A stretch of 59,033 nt of DNA from Halorubrum coriense DSM 10284 (lineage in GTDB: Archaea > Halobacteriota > Halobacteria > Halobacteriales > Haloferacaceae), in assembly GCF_000337035.1 (NCBI RefSeq), contig NZ_AOJL01000061.1, positions 6,987 through 66,019 on the forward strand, in the 5' to 3' direction. A program made the translations under genes and the position numbers. Below are positions 1 through 8,403 of this stretch, piece by piece (the first letter of the stretch is position 1; each line of letters starts with the position of its first letter). The notes under the pieces are model-generated. The model saw only the letters and a list, made by a program, of their open reading frames with translations. It did not search any database and was not told where the DNA came from.

Positions 1-258
1 GAGTGGGACACCTCGAGAACGTGTTCACGGTGTGGAGACGACGCGAAATCGAACCGTGTCGAGCGTGGCCTGTACGTCTGCTCGTCGTGCGAGTTGGTAG
101 CCAACGCGGATTGTAACGGGGCGGAGAATATGCGTCAGAAGATAACTCCGAGTCCTCACGGCGAGGATAGGAGTACCGGCTGTGTGGCACAGCCATCGAC
201 ACACCTGTTCGACCGCGAGAGCGGGAGATTTCACACGAGAGAACAAGTCGTGTCGTAG
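1..258 (+). CDS. tnpB: TnpB RNA-guided nuclease, C-terminal part (cut by window edge)
   Basis: Frame 1 is open from the first base to a TAG at 256-258 and encodes the last 85 residues of an IS605/IS1341-type TnpB. Visible are the zinc-ribbon pair CSRCGDD and CSSCELV, followed by NADCNGAENM, which carries the third RuvC aspartate. The tail is nearly identical to that of the complete TnpB at 34851-36101, so both belong to one haloarchaeal subfamily. TnpB is a transposon-encoded RNA-guided DNA nuclease. The N-terminal part and the element's left end lie outside the window. Confidence 0.9.
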   Translation, partial: EWDTSRTCSRCGDDAKSNRVERGLYVCSSCELVANADCNGAENMRQKITPSPHGEDRSTGCVAQPSTHLFDRESGRFHTREQVVS

Positions 259-320
259 ACCAGCAAATATCCCACCTGCGGCACGGGAAGCCTCGCCGTT
301 TATGACGAGGAGGATGTCAC
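259..320 (+). mobile_element. Right end of IS605-type element (guide-RNA scaffold hairpin)
   Basis: After the tnpB stop come GGGAAGCCTCG, a short loop, and CGAGGAGGATGTCAC. The same hairpin plus the terminal GAGGATGTCAC recurs at the right ends near 25875, 34790 (minus) and 56905, which defines the element boundary at 320. In this family the right end is the 3' scaffold of the omega RNA and the flank beyond it acts as guide; I infer that here. The terminus also supplies the stop codon of the convergent gene at 317-1336. Confidence 0.75.
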
Positions 321-1336
321 TGCTCGTTAATCATGGAGCGGGCAGCGGACTGGATATTTTCTGCCGTCTTTGATCCGATCTGATATACGTCGGTCAACTC
401 TTCCTGAGACGCTTGTGTAATATCATACGGGGTTTGATACCCAGACTCAGCAAGAAAGTACGCCTGTTGCCCGGTAACAACATCGATATCAGCGACACTT
501 GGCCCGTACAGTACTCGGAGCTTTGGGAGCGCTTCGGAGGCTGGGACACCTGAAGCCGCAAGTGACGAGAGAGCAGGGTCAAATACTGATTCTGAAACTC
601 CAGTCTGGTCACGAAGCCGCTCAGCGGCAGGTTTCGCTCTCCCAACGAGTTCACGAGCTCCCTCGATAGCCACACCAGTAATTCCTTCGGAGATTCCGTT
701 AATATCGGAAAGATACCCAGGTCGAGAGTCCGCCAGCTCTTCGAGAGACGCCACGCCCGCCTCCGCGAATTTGCCCGCCCTCTGTGGTCCAATACCTTGA
801 ATGCGCTCTAGTTCAGAGAGAATTTCTGCTTTAGACCGCTCCGGTTTTTCTGACTCTGTGACCTTTCCCTCCGGATTCGAAGCTTGGGGAACCGGGCTCG
901 TATTTTCACTAGGTTTCAGTGAATCCGGAAGAGAGGGAAGATCGACGATTTGGAGGTCATCCGAAGAGACGTCATCAGCGATCGGGGAATTTTCCAGAGC
1001 GGATTGGACGCGTTTACCGTTTCGTTCAGCGATGTTGGACTCGGTAACGTACGAGACTAGTGCCGATCGCTCGCGAGAACTGAGCATCCCGCTGGATGGG
1101 AGATCACCAATAACAGCATCCACGTCGCGTTGGTTCGGAAACCACGCGTCCCCCATGGCTACGAAGAACGGAACGAATGGCTCAGGAACGGTGTCTCGTT
1201 CAGTGAGCCCCAACTTGTCCGTAAGCACGACAACGGCCCTATCATCTAGTGACAATTGGTACCGCCCACCGGGGAGAGAGATCTCCAGTTTTAATCGATC
1301 GACCGAATCGCGAATCAGCCTCGTCGGTTGGCGCAT
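317..1336 (-). CDS. Helix-hairpin-helix protein of unknown function
   Basis: 339 aa. The N-terminal ~110 residues are a globular domain I do not recognise. Residues ~120-170 are a Ser/Pro/Glu-rich linker. The C-terminal ~165 residues hold two helix-hairpin-helix DNA-binding units: LERIQGIGPQRAGKFAEAG and, near the end, a unit with VYQIGSKTAENI. The spacing GYQTPYDIT...EELTDV..IG parallels GFETPADVT...ESLTEA..VG in the neighbouring RecQ-like protein, so the two proteins share the same module. The start is ATG at 1336. The TGA stop at 317-319 lies inside the inserted IS terminus, so the native C-terminus is probably altered. Role unknown; a DNA-structure-binding partner of the helicase is a reasonable inference. 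Confidence 0.75.
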   Translation of the reverse strand: MRQPTRLIRDSVDRLKLEISLPGGRYQLSLDDRAVVVLTDKLGLTERDTVPEPFVPFFVAMGDAWFPNQRDVDAVIGDLPSSGMLSSRERSALVSYVTESNIAERNGKRVQSALENSPIADDVSSDDLQIVDLPSLPDSLKPSENTSPVPQASNPEGKVTESEKPERSKAEILSELERIQGIGPQRAGKFAEAGVASLEELADSRPGYLSDINGISEGITGVAIEGARELVGRAKPAAERLRDQTGVSESVFDPALSSLAASGVPASEALPKLRVLYGPSVADIDVVTGQQAYFLAESGYQTPYDITQASQEELTDVYQIGSKTAENIQSAARSMINEQ

Positions 1337-1608: not shown

Positions 1609-1965
1609 TCAAATTTCTGCTAAGGCAAATGGGTATACTGGCCCACTGCCGGCGTCACGGAGCATAAACGCCGCTCCAGTAAATGTCCAGCGTGAGTCGA
1701 CAATGTCGTTAACAACTAACACTGGACCTGCCCGAACACTACCAGCAGCGGTCATAGTACCCTCAACGTTCCACCGCTTCTGATACGAGTTGGCCAACTC
1801 TTTTCGAGGTTGTACCGACTTGGTTTGCTCCAATGCCTCGATGTAGGGTAGATCCAAGTTCGCTGCTATCTGCTGGGCAAGATCTGCGATCTGACCGGTT
1901 TTATCCCAAATAGGAACTGAGGTTACCCACGCCGGCGCGGGTGACGGACTCCACTCACCATACAG
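1609..1965 (-). pseudogene. Phosphoribosyltransferase-like domain detached from RecQ-like helicase
   Basis: Directly downstream of the helicase stop, and in the same reading frame, 118 codons remain open: LYGEWSPSPAPAWVTSVPIW, then DKTGQIADLAQQIA, PRKELANSYQKRWNVEG, GPVLVVNDIVDSRWTFTG and GSGPVYPFALAEI, ending in TGA at 1609. This matches the C-terminal PRT-like domain known from RecQ-type helicases of actinobacteria and others (pattern VLLVDD-VDSGWT). Separation from the helicase by one TAA at 1966-1968 points to a nonsense mutation, unless there is readthrough or internal initiation. An ATG exists at 1857, but it would cut the domain in half. Confidence 0.75.
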
Positions 1966-4584
1966 TTATACAGCAGCTGAGATGAGATCGGCGTGATACT
2001 GGCCAGTACCTCGTTGTTCTCTTACACGTGTTCCCCAACCAGGGTCATCTAGTGTCGCCAGCACAAGGCCATGTTCCATGTTCCGGTCATCATCGATCAC
2101 AGAGCGCCCGCCATCTTGCTTTGGCAGGTAGTATCGCGACGATATCTCACCAGTTGATGCGCCCTTATAATGATCAACCGCTACATCGACCAGTTCACCC
2201 TTTTCGATAGTCGATGGAACAAACCCACCAACACAATTGGCACGCTGTCCGCAGTCCCTCTCAAGTGATCCGTCTAACTCATTATCGATGAACCGAGTGA
2301 GACACGTATCAGTCGCTGCAAACTCTTGGATTCGCTCTAATTCTTCCCACCGGTGCTGTGTAACTGACTCAATACGATCGTGATCGTAAGGCCAGTCTTT
2401 GGTGGTCCGCTCATACCCGTTTTCTCCTTTGTAGATCGCATTCTCAACCCGCAGGATGTTGAGACAAGTATCCGCAGCGCCCCACCCAATGTTGACGTGT
2501 TTAAGAAGTTCGTATTTATGGAGTTGGGTGTTGCTGGCTTCGAGTATCTCAAGCACTTCTTGGAAGGCTTCTGGTTCGGGGAAGGCTTGTTCAATAAAGT
2601 ACTCAGCCACCTCGTCATCGCTTTCGCCACTCAGCATAACTGCCTTCGCGTCATCGAGCGCACGCCCAGCTCGCCCAATCTCCTGATAGTATCGGATGAG
2701 GTTCGGCGGCCGTTGGAAGTGGATCACCCAGCCTAAATCGGGTTTGTTGAACCCCATCTCGAGTGCGTTTGTGGCGACGAGCCCGTCAACCTCATTCTCC
2801 ATCAACTGGGATTCAAGCTCCCGACGGCGATCTCCGTCAAGACGGCCATAATATGGCTCGACGCCGTGACCAAACTGTTGGAGCCACTCAGCGACAAGGT
2901 CGACTTCATCAGTCGTCAGGCAGTAAATGATCCCAGAACCATCGAAGGAAGCAACATTCTCAGCAAGCCAAGCAAGCCGCTCAGCCTTTGAGTCCATCTC
3001 AATGGTTTGAATTCGGAGTGAATCTCGAACCAACTCTCCGCGGATCGCATCAAGATCTGGCACCTGTGTTGTGATGTCGTCAACGACGCGATCGTTTGCA
3101 GTGGCCGTCGTTGCTGCCACCGGAATATGTCCCGGTAACTCATTGAGGATACGGCGAATCCGACGGTAGTCAGGCCGGAAATCATGGCCCCAGTCTGAGA
3201 TACAGTGAGCCTCGTCAACGACAAGCAGTCCAAACTCCTCGTTCATCTCTAAGAGAACTTCCTGTTGGAACTGTGAATTTGCGAGTCGCTCTGGCGAGAT
3301 GAGGAGGACGTCACAGTCACCTTCGACGATGGCGGTCTTTGCCTCGTCCCATTCATCGGTGTTGTTGGAGTTAATAGTCCACGCGGAGAGCCCAAGCTGA
3401 TCTTCTGCGTCTTGGACTTGGTTGTGCATCAATGACAACAATGGGCTGATGATGAGTGTCGGGCCAGCCCCCTGTGCTCGGCGGAGTTTGGTGGCAGTGA
3501 AGTAGACCGTACTTTTACCCCACCCAGTCCGCTGGACTAGTAACAACCGATCGTTGTCATTGACAAGTCGATCAATCGCCTCCCACTGTTGTGGACGAAA
3601 CTCCGCATCGGCACCGATGCTTCGTTCCAGTAGTTTCTGTGCTCGGGCTTTCGGTACCCGTCCTGTATCGCCTGAGTTGGCGTGATCAGCAACACCCTCT
3701 CCATCTGGGTGGGCAGTCGACTCAGCTACTGGTGTGTCAGGGTTCGGTTTGGACTGGATGGTGGGGTCTTCGGACTGTGTTGGATCCCCTGTGGTCTTAC
3801 CGTCAGATTCAGGCGTAGACTGTGTCTCGCTAGGGTCACCAACAGCAACCGTCTGGCCCTGTGTCGACGTGTCACTTGATTCGGTCCAGTCATCAACAGC
3901 TTCACCAAGAGACACTGCCATGCTGTCGCCAACGTACTGGGCTTCAGTGAGTGACTCAACAGACGCAGCGGTGACGTCAGCTGGTGTTTCAAATCCCTCC
4001 ACACTCAGCATATGATAGTATTTGATTGAGTAGCCGCCGTCTTGAAGAGCTTCAGCTAGTCGTGCTGGCTCGAACCACTCAATGAGTGATCCGACAGCTT
4101 CCTTTGACAACACTCCGGCAGGTGCGAGGTTACCATACGCTGTAGCAACCTCGCTACGGGGGACATCCAGACCATCTACAAGGTTCGCCAGTAGTGTTCC
4201 ATTGGTCTCGGATGCTTCATTGGCGACTGCCCAGACACGTCGACAGGTTCGTTCTCTAAGTTGTGTCGAGCCAATCAGAGTGGGCAGCGACGCTGATACA
4301 ATATCGTTTACGTGCTCATAGCCAGCATCAGAGAGTTTCCCAGCAAGCGTGGGACCGACGCCAGCAAGGTCTGTCACATCTACTCCTTGTTCTGTCAAGT
4401 TGTCAGCTTCTGCTGTCTCAGAAGTGTGATCAAGCATCGCTGTACGGAACTCGGAGGAGTTCTGATACCCGACAGCCGACCACGAATGAGCAGAATCAGT
4501 TTCATTGGTCATGTGGCGGATTACTTGACTCAGCGTATCTTCGTATTCACAACTAGAAACGGGGCACGAGAACGACTTTGCCAT
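1966..4584 (-). CDS. RecQ-like superfamily 2 helicase with N-terminal zinc finger and HhH domain
   Basis: About 872 aa. The order is: a C2H2-like finger (CPVSSC...H) at the N-terminus; an HhH unit (TDLAGVGPTLAGKL) near residue 75; a second HhH-like segment near 205-230; an acidic Ser/Thr-rich linker to ~310; then the RecQ helicase core. Walker A is RTGWGKST (~355), motif II is VVDEAHCISDWGHDFRPDY (~460), and motif VI is YYQEIGRAGR. The C-terminal PRT-like domain seen in relatives is cut off by TAA at 1966. I chose ATG 4584 over TTG 4602 because a TATA-like box sits about 24 bp upstream, fitting a leaderless transcript. Predicted ATP-dependent 3'-5' DNA unwinding; the biological role (repair or defence) is inferred only. 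Confidence 0.88.
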   Translation of the reverse strand: MAKSFSCPVSSCEYEDTLSQVIRHMTNETDSAHSWSAVGYQNSSEFRTAMLDHTSETAEADNLTEQGVDVTDLAGVGPTLAGKLSDAGYEHVNDIVSASLPTLIGSTQLRERTCRRVWAVANEASETNGTLLANLVDGLDVPRSEVATAYGNLAPAGVLSKEAVGSLIEWFEPARLAEALQDGGYSIKYYHMLSVEGFETPADVTAASVESLTEAQYVGDSMAVSLGEAVDDWTESSDTSTQGQTVAVGDPSETQSTPESDGKTTGDPTQSEDPTIQSKPNPDTPVAESTAHPDGEGVADHANSGDTGRVPKARAQKLLERSIGADAEFRPQQWEAIDRLVNDNDRLLLVQRTGWGKSTVYFTATKLRRAQGAGPTLIISPLLSLMHNQVQDAEDQLGLSAWTINSNNTDEWDEAKTAIVEGDCDVLLISPERLANSQFQQEVLLEMNEEFGLLVVDEAHCISDWGHDFRPDYRRIRRILNELPGHIPVAATTATANDRVVDDITTQVPDLDAIRGELVRDSLRIQTIEMDSKAERLAWLAENVASFDGSGIIYCLTTDEVDLVAEWLQQFGHGVEPYYGRLDGDRRRELESQLMENEVDGLVATNALEMGFNKPDLGWVIHFQRPPNLIRYYQEIGRAGRALDDAKAVMLSGESDDEVAEYFIEQAFPEPEAFQEVLEILEASNTQLHKYELLKHVNIGWGAADTCLNILRVENAIYKGENGYERTTKDWPYDHDRIESVTQHRWEELERIQEFAATDTCLTRFIDNELDGSLERDCGQRANCVGGFVPSTIEKGELVDVAVDHYKGASTGEISSRYYLPKQDGGRSVIDDDRNMEHGLVLATLDDPGWGTRVREQRGTGQYHADLISAAV

Positions 4585-4749: not shown

Positions 4750-5688
4750 ATGGATTCAGACCGAGCCCGTGGAATCCTCTTCGGGTTGGCCTGCGGGGAT
4801 GCGCTTGGTCGACCAGTTGAGTTCTCGTCGGGAGCCACAATTGCGTCTGACCACGGCCAACTTGACGAGATGGTCGGCCACGGCACATGGAATCAACCGG
4901 CAGGAACGGTCACGGATGATACCGAACAGGCTCTCTGTATTGCCCGCAGCCTTGTCGAACAGCGAACATTCGACCCAGCAGATATCGCGTCTCGGTTCGT
5001 TGATTGGTACGATACTAACCCATTCGACATCGGCCGAATGACTCTAAAATCGCTGAGTCGGCTCAAACATGGTGACGACTGGAGCGAAGCCGGCCAACAC
5101 GTCTGGGAGGATAGCCCAGAGGGCCAAAACGCAGGCAACGGGAGTGTGATGCGGTGTTCACCGCTCGCAATACCATACGCAACTAACTGGGAGCAACTGG
5201 TCAGGGTGAGTCGACAATCCTCATACATCACGCACGCAGATCCACGGTGTACCTACGGGTGTGCCGTATTGAATCTCACACTTGCCGGTCTCCTTGTAGA
5301 CACGGACACGCCGCTTCGAGATGCGCTCCGTTACGTCGACGCAGATGCCCCTGACGAATTGATTACCGCGCTTGATGCGCTGACAGGTAATGAAACGCCC
5401 GGCCGACTAGAGACATCAGGCTACGTTATCCATTCACTCCAGACAGCACTCCACGACGGATTGGAGGCTACAGACGCTGAAGAAGCAATCATCACCGCGG
5501 TTAACCGAGGAGGAGATACTGACACGATTGGGGCGATTACAGGAGCCATCGCAGGAGCCCGGTTTGGGGCATCTCAGCTCCCTGACCGGTGGCTTTCAGG
5601 CATTGATGAAGTAAACGAGCTTGAATCACTAGCAGTGAAACTAGAAGAAACGGCTCTGTTGAATTCCTCAGGAAATGACACATTCTGA
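4750..5688 (+). CDS. ADP-ribosylglycohydrolase family protein (DraG-like)
   Basis: 312 aa, the usual family length. The dinuclear-metal motifs are present: GLACGDALGRPVEF (~12-25), TVTDDTEQAL (~53-61) and NRGGDTDTIGAITGAIAG (~254-271). The family removes ADP-ribose from proteins or nucleic acids. It sits between DNA helicase genes in an accessory island, so it could reverse an ADP-ribosylation made during defence or repair; no ADP-ribosyltransferase is visible nearby. The last ~12 codons (TALLNSSGNDTF) and the stop are read from a solo IS end (GGCTCTGTTGAATTCC...), so the original C-terminus was probably replaced. The catalytic core is complete. Confidence 0.92.
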   Translation: MDSDRARGILFGLACGDALGRPVEFSSGATIASDHGQLDEMVGHGTWNQPAGTVTDDTEQALCIARSLVEQRTFDPADIASRFVDWYDTNPFDIGRMTLKSLSRLKHGDDWSEAGQHVWEDSPEGQNAGNGSVMRCSPLAIPYATNWEQLVRVSRQSSYITHADPRCTYGCAVLNLTLAGLLVDTDTPLRDALRYVDADAPDELITALDALTGNETPGRLETSGYVIHSLQTALHDGLEATDAEEAIITAVNRGGDTDTIGAITGAIAGARFGASQLPDRWLSGIDEVNELESLAVKLEETALLNSSGNDTF

Positions 5689-6177: not shown

Positions 6178-8403
6178 CTAGAGAAAATCGTCTAATCCGG
6201 TGTCCACTAAGTCGGCCGTATCCTCCTCAAGCTCATGATCTAAGTCTCTGGTATCAGGGACGTTGAACGAGATCGTCGGCTGTTCGTCCTGTACTTCTTC
6301 TAGTACTGCTTCGACCTCACTGTGGAACGCTGATTCAGGAGTCGTGCCGGTCACGGTACACCATGCACGTGACCGCGTCAAGGCTACGAAGAGCTCATTC
6401 CGCCGGTGTAACTCGGATCCACGCCACGTTTCCTCCATGGTTGAATCAGCACCCATGACGTATATCGAAGCTGCTTCATTCCCTTTTGCTCGGTTGATTC
6501 CGGACAACGTCACCTCTCCAGGCCGCTCAAACTCTTTATCATCATTAGCTGTTGATGAGTTCCTATCTGGCCACACGGCGTTCAATTCGATATCAAACGC
6601 ATTGAGTGAATGCGCCAGTTCTGATTCAACGAACTCCCGATTACTTTTTCCGCATCTCCGCTGACCGCTTAGTGGGATTACGAGTAGATCTTCGGGATCT
6701 AATCCTTTCTCGAAGATGTCCTTACGGATCTGCTCAGCGACCCATTCGATTTCATCTGCTTTGGAGGCGAACGATTGGTGTGTGAGATGCTTCTCAGGCG
6801 GGTAGTTGTCTTGGAGCGGATGTGGGGAGTTCTCCGGTGGTCTCGTTAGTATCGCTTCACTTCCGGTTTTACGGAAGTCCCCGTCAATGTCGTAGCCAAG
6901 GTTTTCCCAGCCATCTTGCCGCGTGATCATCTGGACCGGGCCATCGTCCCGCTTGAGTCCCATCCCCAGTGCGTGAGCACTCATAAGGAGAGGGCGAGGG
7001 GAGCGGTAGGCCTTCCGCATAATGTAGGTCTTCTGTGGACCGTTCTTATATGTCCCACTCAGATCTAACAGAACGTTACCGTCATCGTTGCTTCCGAACA
7101 GATTCTTTGGACTTGGTGCCTCCAAACTTCCGAGGTCTTGTGCCTCATCGTAAGCCCAAATAAGCCGATTATCGTCTGTGAGCGACTCTAGACACATGTT
7201 GAGGAACTTGGGACCGAAGTCTTGAGCTTCATCAACCAGAATCGCATCCCAGAGATTCGGAAGATGTTCTTTCGGTGCGTCGAGAACTTCCTGTGAGACT
7301 GCCTCAAGTTTATCTTCAACCTCTGGAAACGCCGACTTTGCATCTGGATAGGTTCGATAATCAACGCCCTCAACATTATTGACGACGCGATAGTAGACTC
7401 CATCTCCAGTTTGGACACCACCCCAGCCGTGGATGATATCGATCTCTGCGTCAGCCTCCGCAAGCTGTTCGCCACTAAACTGCTCATAATACCGCTCTGT
7501 GAGAGACGTAATGTGGTCGTAGAGACTCTTTGTGTTGAAAGTCAGCGCAATCCGGGGAGTTTCTACATCAGGTGCCCACTCATCTGGGTCACTGAGCATC
7601 CGCGCTGCTTTCATTGCGACAAGTACCGTTTTTCCTGATCCAGCGATGCCTCGAATCTGTTGTGGGCCAGGCGGAATCCGGAGGCCGATCTCTTGCTGTC
7701 GCATATCCAATTCGCGGATCCCAGTGGTCACCACGTCGTAATGCTCTCCCCGTGTAGTGGGGTCATCAGGTGGAGATCCGTGTGAACCGCTAATCGGCTG
7801 GCCACAGCTGAGGACAGCCCGAGCAGCATCGTACTGGTCTTCGCTCAACGGATCGAAGTTTGGGAGTTGATCAAGCCGTCCGCGGAGGGTTTGGGCACCC
7901 AACTCATCACCGGTAATTACTCTTGGGGCAGCTGGCCCGGTGAATCCCCGCTCTTCCCATTCGGACCGGTCAATGTTTGGAAGAGCGACAATTGGCGTCA
8001 TCGAGACAACGCACTGTCCGGCTGACCGGAGTTGTGACTCCCGCTGAAAATATGACTGGAGATGGTATCCTTGATCTCGTGCCTGCTCAAGTGGGCTCGC
8101 AGTTTTTTGAGTTACTCCATCCAGAATCCACGTATCTCCTTCAATTCGATCTATCTGGTCTATCGTGAATCCTTTACATTCTAGAATAACCAGCCCCATA
8201 TTCTCATGTAGCAGTACGAAATCCGGCTTACGATCGAACCGATTCCCACCCTTCTGAATGATGGGATATTGATGGTAGAGGACTCCATTCTCATCCTTAT
8301 CAAACGCTCGTTTGAGCCGATTCCAGAATTTGAGTTCTGCTTCGCCGCCAGGATCGGACTCAGAGACCGAAGAGGCAGACAGGTATTCCATGTGTGCCAA
8401 CAT
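6178..8403 (-). CDS. NERD nuclease domain - UvrD-type helicase fusion
   Basis: 741 aa. Residues ~20-130 form a NERD (nuclease-related) domain with the PD-(D/E)xK signature PDFVLLHEN...VILECKG (D61, E75, K77). An SF1 helicase follows: Walker A GIAGSGKTV (~252-260), FNTKSLYDHI, motif II ILVDEAQDFG (~390), and C-terminal RAKGNEAASIYVMGAD and ELFVALTRSRAWCTVTG motifs. The start is ATG 8403 (a second ATG is at 8391). It is divergent from the large UvrD helicase beginning at 8676, so a shared 272-bp promoter region is likely. NERD-helicase fusions are widespread in accessory islands and probably process DNA ends; which DNA they act on is not evident here. Confidence 0.9.
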   Translation of the reverse strand: MLAHMEYLSASSVSESDPGGEAELKFWNRLKRAFDKDENGVLYHQYPIIQKGGNRFDRKPDFVLLHENMGLVILECKGFTIDQIDRIEGDTWILDGVTQKTASPLEQARDQGYHLQSYFQRESQLRSAGQCVVSMTPIVALPNIDRSEWEERGFTGPAAPRVITGDELGAQTLRGRLDQLPNFDPLSEDQYDAARAVLSCGQPISGSHGSPPDDPTTRGEHYDVVTTGIRELDMRQQEIGLRIPPGPQQIRGIAGSGKTVLVAMKAARMLSDPDEWAPDVETPRIALTFNTKSLYDHITSLTERYYEQFSGEQLAEADAEIDIIHGWGGVQTGDGVYYRVVNNVEGVDYRTYPDAKSAFPEVEDKLEAVSQEVLDAPKEHLPNLWDAILVDEAQDFGPKFLNMCLESLTDDNRLIWAYDEAQDLGSLEAPSPKNLFGSNDDGNVLLDLSGTYKNGPQKTYIMRKAYRSPRPLLMSAHALGMGLKRDDGPVQMITRQDGWENLGYDIDGDFRKTGSEAILTRPPENSPHPLQDNYPPEKHLTHQSFASKADEIEWVAEQIRKDIFEKGLDPEDLLVIPLSGQRRCGKSNREFVESELAHSLNAFDIELNAVWPDRNSSTANDDKEFERPGEVTLSGINRAKGNEAASIYVMGADSTMEETWRGSELHRRNELFVALTRSRAWCTVTGTTPESAFHSEVEAVLEEVQDEQPTISFNVPDTRDLDHELEEDTADLVDTGLDDFL

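What the first reader, a model, noticed from the sequence alone, without database searches (positions are those of the whole stretch)
1609..4584. RecQ-like helicase separated from its phosphoribosyltransferase-like domain by one in-frame TAA
The frame runs through TAA at 1966-1968 without any shift into a complete PRT-like domain (LYGEWSPSP...VVNDIVDSRWTFTG). Relatives carry both parts in one polypeptide. Either this is a fresh nonsense mutation, or the two parts are made separately or by readthrough, which would be a new arrangement.
Basis: partly seen in the sequence, partly recalled or inferred. Interest (0 to 1): 0.7.

Follow-up and report, generated by a model that had tools for sequence, protein, structure and literature searches.

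The report
Recently broken RecQ–phosphoribosyltransferase helicase gene
A salt-loving archaeon carries a helicase gene of a known toxin-like defence family that was recently cut short by a single stop codon; related species carry it whole, so this looks like ordinary gene decay rather than a new protein arrangement.

Summary
In detail: an in-frame TAA (1966-1968, minus strand) separates an 872-residue RecQ-like helicase from a phosphoribosyltransferase (PRT)-like domain in the same frame. Both halves match consecutive parts of one PADLOC model, PsyrT, so this is a haloarchaeal PsyrT/RqlH gene. In 22 other haloarchaeal copies the PRT follows in one frame and none has a stop at the junction, including the three closest (about 80% identical). 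One other copy (G068, same genus) has an unrelated nonsense codon inside the helicase. No usable start follows the TAA until a TTG 36 codons into the PRT. Pairwise dN/dS matches that among intact relatives, so the stop is recent. Four radical changes sit at columns invariant in all other haloarchaeal copies. Best reading: a recent nonsense mutation in an accessory gene without an antitoxin partner, which has begun to decay. Published RqlH work shows the PRT is the toxic part and dispensable for helicase activity, so the stop would detoxify the protein. Sequencing error cannot be excluded. Readthrough or a programmed split is unsupported. Interest is low.

The parts
1969..4584 (-). RecQ-like helicase part of a PsyrT/RqlH-type gene, 872 residues from ATG 4584, with N-terminal helix-hairpin-helix region and linker
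   Evidence: PADLOC PsyrT 5-562 at E 2e-194; Pfam DEAD, Helicase_C, HHH_5; NCBIfam RecQ family
1966..1968 (-). in-frame TAA between helicase and PRT
   Evidence: sense codon for Glu/Asp in the three close relatives
1609..1965 (-). PRT-like domain behind the stop (118 codons, then TGA 1609-1611), inferred to be untranslated
   Evidence: PADLOC PsyrT 569-683; NCBIfam ribose-phosphate diphosphokinase E 4e-4 and GntX E 0.0035; PDB PRPP synthetases E 4e-4 with the profile of ten
2758..2760 (-). G609E, in helicase motif V (ATNALGMG; motif name recalled)
   Evidence: Gly in 21 of 21 other haloarchaeal sequences and 8 of 8 bacterial ones aligned
2242..2244 (-). C781R, one of the three clustered cysteines (CGxCxxC) of a zinc-finger-like segment (zinc role recalled from RecQ)
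   Evidence: Cys in 21 of 21 other haloarchaeal and 7 of 8 bacterial sequences, the eighth having a gap
2065..2067 (-). R840L
   Evidence: Arg in 21 of 21 other haloarchaeal sequences; Arg/Lys in the 6 bacterial sequences that reach it
1675..1677 (-). E970G, in the PRT, behind the stop
   Evidence: Glu in 21 of 21 other haloarchaeal sequences; Val/Leu in bacteria, so conserved only within haloarchaea
1855..1857 (-). first ATG/GTG/TTG in frame after the stop (TTG); would give only the last 82 residues of the PRT
   Evidence: no convincing ribosome site upstream
4750..5688 (+). divergent ADP-ribosylglycohydrolase gene, recurrent neighbour of this family in haloarchaea
   Evidence: Pfam PF03747 E 1.2e-78; neighbour within 5 kb in 6 of 22 genomes
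317..1336 (-). helix-hairpin-helix protein downstream; not a PsyrA and not a conserved neighbour
   Evidence: Pfam HHH_5; its only matches in the fetched loci of other genomes are the HHH part of the helicases themselves

Best explanation
The locus is a haloarchaeal PsyrT/RqlH gene (HHH region + RecQ-like helicase + PRT-like domain) without an adjacent DprA-like antitoxin, interrupted at the helicase-PRT junction by one recent nonsense mutation. Translation ends at residue 872 and the PRT is not made (inferred). The gene has started to decay, as four radical changes at otherwise invariant positions indicate. In the E. coli relative the PRT is the toxic part and the helicase alone is non-toxic (published, PMC4670107), so the stop would remove a costly activity; that this favoured its spread is inference. 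Shown here: stop, frame, homology, intact relatives, extra changes, recency. Inferred: no readthrough, loss of function, reason for the loss.
For: All 22 other haloarchaeal copies have the PRT in the same frame as the helicase, with no stop at the junction (second count by profile). The three closest (G397; G396 = Halorubrum halophilum; G459 = MAG LUM.70) align over the junction without gaps at about 80% protein identity. No ATG/GTG/TTG follows within the first 36 codons of the PRT. Four of five departures from invariant columns are radical (BLOSUM62 <= -2), against 5 of 37 in 20 other sequences without the divergent G307 (Fisher p 0.005), or 11 of 56 with it (p 0.011). Branch model: omega on this branch 0.139 against 0.067 elsewhere, helicase+PRT, 2dlnL 5.62. 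An independent nonsense codon lies in G068, which differs by five bases from the whole G120 gene. No PsyrA in the window or its genome: best genome match a 62-residue stretch at E 5e-4.
Against: The PRT behind the stop is intact in frame, keeps its VNDIVDSRW motif, and shows no excess of amino-acid change in pairwise comparison (dN/dS 0.13-0.19, against 0.17-0.20 among the intact relatives). This fits either a recent stop or continued translation of the PRT. The radical-change test rests on five changes. In the branch model no single region is strong: PRT 2dlnL 4.02 with omega at an unreliable value of 12, helicase 2.27. One assembly only; reads were not available.
Confidence: 0.85

Rival explanations
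1. The helicase without its PRT is the selected product: the stop is a detoxifying, suppressor-like mutation, and the 872-residue protein still works as a helicase.
For: In PMC4670107 (abstract, passages, sections 8 and 15 read whole) deleting the PRT abolished RqlH toxicity, the PRT was called dispensable for helicase activity in M. smegmatis, insertions in rqlH rescued a strain lacking the antitoxin, and S. sonnei 53G has helicase and PRT separated by an insertion element. The helicase core is under strong constraint (dN/dS 0.03-0.04). Two of eight bacterial plasmid copies examined (both Rhodococcus) lack the PRT.
Against: G609E in motif V and C781R in the zinc-finger-like segment hit positions that vary in no other sequence with a residue there. 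The constraint signal mostly predates the stop. 19 of 22 other haloarchaeal copies keep the PRT frame without an adjacent PsyrA, so lack of PsyrA does not by itself force loss of the PRT.
Confidence: 0.1
2. The stop is a sequencing or assembly error in one draft genome.
For: One base in one 69-contig assembly; no second genome carrying the near-identical gene was found among 52 genomes of the genus.
Against: Other radical departures in the same gene are single-base changes too, so several errors in one gene would be needed to explain all of them, though not the stop alone.
Confidence: 0.05
3. A programmed split: the PRT is made separately by reinitiation, or a full-length protein is made by readthrough of TAA.
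For: The PRT frame is intact and not detectably relaxed pairwise. PRTase effectors paired with a separate DprA protein exist in E. coli (PMC9122126, passages).
Against: No start codon at the beginning of the PRT; the relatives' GTG there is absent in the window. No relative shares the arrangement (0 of 22). PRT alone was not toxic in E. coli (PMC4670107). E970G sits in the PRT.
Confidence: 0.02

Closest known systems
PsyrT of the PsyrTA toxin-antitoxin/defence system (PADLOC PDLC03928)
   Same: Helicase and PRT parts match consecutive positions of the one model; haloarchaeal relatives G263 (two copies) and G013 have a true PsyrA six bases downstream
   Different: N-terminal HHH region and linker not covered by the model; no PsyrA next to it or convincingly in the genome; interrupted by a stop
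RqlH of Mycobacterium smegmatis / E. coli (RecQ-like helicase with C-terminal PRTase)
   Same: Same domain order; the PRT keeps the DIVD tetrapeptide that PMC4670107 mutated in E. coli RqlH (window residues 960-963)
   Different: E. coli RqlH is paired with RqlI; here unpaired, as in nearly all Gram-positive bacteria; truncated before the PRT
Shigella sonnei 53G rqlH with PRT separated by an insertion element (PMC4670107 section 15)
   Same: Helicase and PRT separated by a disrupting mutation
   Different: Insertion element there, nonsense codon here
DpdF of the Dpd system
   Same: RecQ-like helicase; several DpdF models match the helicase, two match the PRT
   Different: Far weaker than PsyrT (best E 4e-86 against 2e-194); NCBIfam DpdF score 140.6 against a cut-off of 550

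Membership tests
PsyrT/RqlH (as a gene family) | RecQ-like helicase core with conserved motifs | tested here: met
   one motif glycine changed (G609E)
PsyrT/RqlH (as a gene family) | C-terminal PRT-like domain in the same polypeptide | tested here: not met
   Encoded in the same frame but behind a stop. Met as frame order in 22 of 22 other haloarchaeal copies, one of which (G068) has a stop inside the helicase. Filed as a disrupted allele, not as a working PsyrT
PsyrTA system | Adjacent DprA-like antitoxin PsyrA/RqlI | tested here: not met
   None in the window or, beyond a 62-residue match at E 5e-4, in the genome; met in G263 and G013 only
PsyrTA system | Toxicity relieved by the antitoxin; phage defence | not testable with these tools
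   Needs expression assays
DpdF | Score above the NCBIfam equivalog cut-off (550) | tested here: not met
   140.6 bits
Canonical RecQ (TIGR01389) | Score above the equivalog cut-off (640.2) | tested here: not met
   264.3 bits; only the broader RecQ-family model TIGR00614 passes (229.9 against 219.8)

The most novel reading that the evidence does not exclude
Haloarchaeal PsyrT genes without PsyrA are held in check some other way, possibly by the neighbouring ADP-ribosylglycohydrolase, and shedding the PRT at the junction is a recurrent escape route that leaves a working, harmless helicase.
Probability: 0.06. Interest if true: 0.5.

Novelty: new member of a known kind. Interest (0 to 1): 0.15.

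Why it matters
It removes a candidate for a new split-protein or readthrough arrangement. It also shows that the PsyrT/RqlH family, described from bacteria in the papers seen here, is present in haloarchaea, mostly without PsyrA, and has been broken by independent nonsense mutations in two Halorubrum lineages. If the PRT is a self-toxic part in archaea too, such natural truncations are ready-made material for testing that.

Tried and rejected
Readthrough or reinitiation: rejected for lack of a start codon, absence of the relatives' GTG, and no relative with the arrangement. Dpd system: DpdF scores are far below PsyrT and below the NCBIfam cut-off. The downstream HHH protein as an antitoxin: it has no PsyrA-like domain and is not a conserved neighbour. 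Same-strain copies on plasmids or viral contigs: none. The scan of genome contigs gave four loci, all on contigs also reached as G genomes. A PRT structure model from five sequences was useless (mean pLDDT 40.2), so no fold search was run; the PRT label rests on sequence profiles and on the literature for RqlH. Papers on M. smegmatis RqlH and on the discovery of PsyrTA are not held; what is said of them comes from other papers' passages. A search for papers holding RecQ, 'phosphoribosyltransferase domain' and antitoxin found none.

Is breakage special to this family? As a control, the neighbouring ADP-ribosylglycohydrolase has 14 near-full-length matches (at least 250 residues) in the same 22 genomes, two of them with an internal stop; three shorter matches were left out. 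The 2 of 23 broken PsyrT copies are therefore not unusual for accessory genes. G396's 'TAG' is the gene's own end, not an interruption.

Sequences left out of counts: the second G263 copy (identical) and L045 (same contig as LUM70) were dropped; only 17 sequences were used. G012/G101, G068/G120 and the two G263 copies are near-identical pairs, so 22 copies are fewer independent lineages. PsyrA was sought genome-wide in 19 genomes; for G456, G457 and G463 only in 16 kb around the gene. For G459 the contig ends 782 bases behind the gene and the genome is 62% complete, so a PsyrA there could be missed.

Full report
What is there. On the minus strand an ATG at 4584 opens a frame of 872 codons that ends at TAA 1966-1968; the same frame continues for 118 codons to TGA 1609-1611. 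The first part has a helix-hairpin-helix region (Pfam HHH_5, residues 69-103), a linker, and a RecQ-family helicase (DEAD 330-503, Helicase_C 545-642). The second part scores weakly against ribose-phosphate diphosphokinase and GntX models (E 4e-4, 0.0035), and a profile of ten relatives finds PRPP synthetases in the PDB at E 4e-4. PADLOC joins them: the helicase matches PsyrT positions 5-562 and the second part positions 569-683 of 689.

What relatives look like. By protein search the gene occurs in 16 of 392 genomes drawn from the order, 5 of 52 of the genus and 10 of 170 of the family; these sets overlap and give 22 genomes with 23 copies. By the PsyrT profile it occurs in 19 of 391 genomes drawn from the class. 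In all 22 copies other than the window's, the PRT follows in the helicase frame with no stop at the junction. The three closest (G397; G396, the same contig as Halorubrum halophilum B8; G459, the same contig as MAG LUM.70) are about 80% identical in protein and 79% in DNA and align across the junction without gaps. They have Glu or Asp at the stop, and the TAA is one substitution away from the codon of two of them. One other copy, G068, has a TGA inside the helicase; it differs at five bases of coding sequence from the whole G120 copy.

How old is the stop. Pairwise dN/dS between the window and the three close relatives is 0.033-0.038 (helicase core), 0.089-0.095 (C-terminal part) and 0.126-0.188 (PRT); among the three relatives it is 0.024-0.043, 0.050-0.095 and 0.172-0.197. 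A rough bound puts the fraction of the window's own branch spent without constraint at no more than about 3% from the helicase core, 8% from the C-terminal part and 6% from the PRT (one-sided 95%, own branch taken as half the pairwise distance). A codon branch model with distant outgroups gave a somewhat raised omega on the window branch (0.139 against 0.067 for helicase plus PRT, 2dlnL 5.62); for the helicase alone 2dlnL was 2.27, and for the PRT 4.02 with an omega at an unreliable value of 12. Together: recent, with hints of relaxation.

Other damage. At columns identical in all other haloarchaeal sequences (22 in the set, the window included), the window departs five times: one mild change (E562D) and four radical ones, G609E, C781R, R840L and E970G. 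G609 is Gly in all eight bacterial relatives aligned as well; C781 is Cys in the seven that have a residue there; R840 is Arg or Lys in the six that reach it; E970 is not conserved in bacteria. Radical changes make up 4 of 5 here against 5 of 37 in 20 other sequences without G307 (p 0.005), or 11 of 56 with it (p 0.011). The numbers are small, but they point to a gene no longer held to its function both before and behind the stop.

Can the PRT still be made? The first ATG, GTG or TTG in frame after the stop is a TTG at 1857, 36 codons into the domain, without a convincing ribosome site; all three close relatives have an in-frame GTG near the domain's start that the window lacks. No relative shows an independent PRT start. 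Readthrough of TAA has no support beyond the intact frame, which recency explains.

What the family does. In E. coli, RqlH is a RecQ-like helicase with a C-terminal PRTase; without its partner RqlI it is genotoxic, deletion of the PRTase or a change in its DIVD motif removes the effect on growth and the SOS response, the PRTase alone is not toxic, and RqlI likely binds the PRTase (PMC4670107: abstract, passages, sections 8 and 15). The same paper reports 55.3% of the strains in its survey with RqlH but no RqlI, nearly all Gram-positive ones so, and a natural case (S. sonnei 53G) with helicase and PRTase separated by an insertion element. PMC8790059 lists PsyrTA as a validated toxin-antitoxin family with a RecQ toxin (passages). 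In haloarchaea a true PsyrA lies directly behind the gene in G263 (two copies) and G013 only; the window's genome has none beyond a 62-residue match at E 5e-4. Most haloarchaeal copies are thus unpaired.

Verdict. The most economical account is a recent nonsense mutation in an accessory PsyrT/RqlH-type gene, followed by the first missense decay. It would remove the toxic part of the protein, as loss of rqlH relieves the antitoxin-less strain in E. coli, but lack of PsyrA alone does not explain it, since 19 of the 22 other copies keep the PRT frame without an adjacent PsyrA. Breakage is not special to this family: 2 of 14 near-full-length ADP-ribosylglycohydrolase matches in the same genomes also carry a stop. 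A sequencing error cannot be excluded without reads.

Noticed in passing
window 4750-5688; also near the PsyrT-like gene in G120, G068, G459, G195, G273: An ADP-ribosylglycohydrolase gene lies within 5 kb of the RecQ-PRT gene in 6 of 22 genomes, in varying orientation; 11 of 22 genomes have such a gene anywhere. Possible functional link or shared accessory region.
   Followed up: partly
L037 10222-11283, L042 1072-2133: True PsyrA (DprA-like, PADLOC E 7e-84) directly behind the RecQ-PRT gene in G263 (two identical copies about 36 kb apart with the same flanks) and G013: complete PsyrTA pairs in haloarchaea.
   Followed up: partly
L032 9131-11215 (G068): Independent TGA inside the helicase of a RecQ-PRT gene that is whole in the 99.7% identical G120 copy.
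   Followed up: yes
L071 2096-3955, L072 1976-4006: Two Rhodococcus plasmid copies end at or shortly after the zinc-finger-like segment and have no PRT nearby; no CDS is listed there in PLSDB.
   Followed up: no
L065 4789-5441 (Sinorhizobium pSymB): PsyrA-like sequence behind the RecQ gene in two pieces and different frames, not annotated: looks like a broken antitoxin next to a whole RecQ-PRT gene.
   Followed up: no
window 6178-8403: Putative NERD/UvrD-type helicase matching PADLOC 'Helicase' (E 3e-101), a further defence-like gene beside the locus.
   Followed up: no
window 1-258: C-terminal end of a TnpB-like gene (open at the window start); several plasmid matches to this part are annotated as transposase or TnpB.
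   Followed up: no
G000:C26:77277-78185: Second ADP-ribosylglycohydrolase copy of the same genome with an internal TGA.
   Followed up: no
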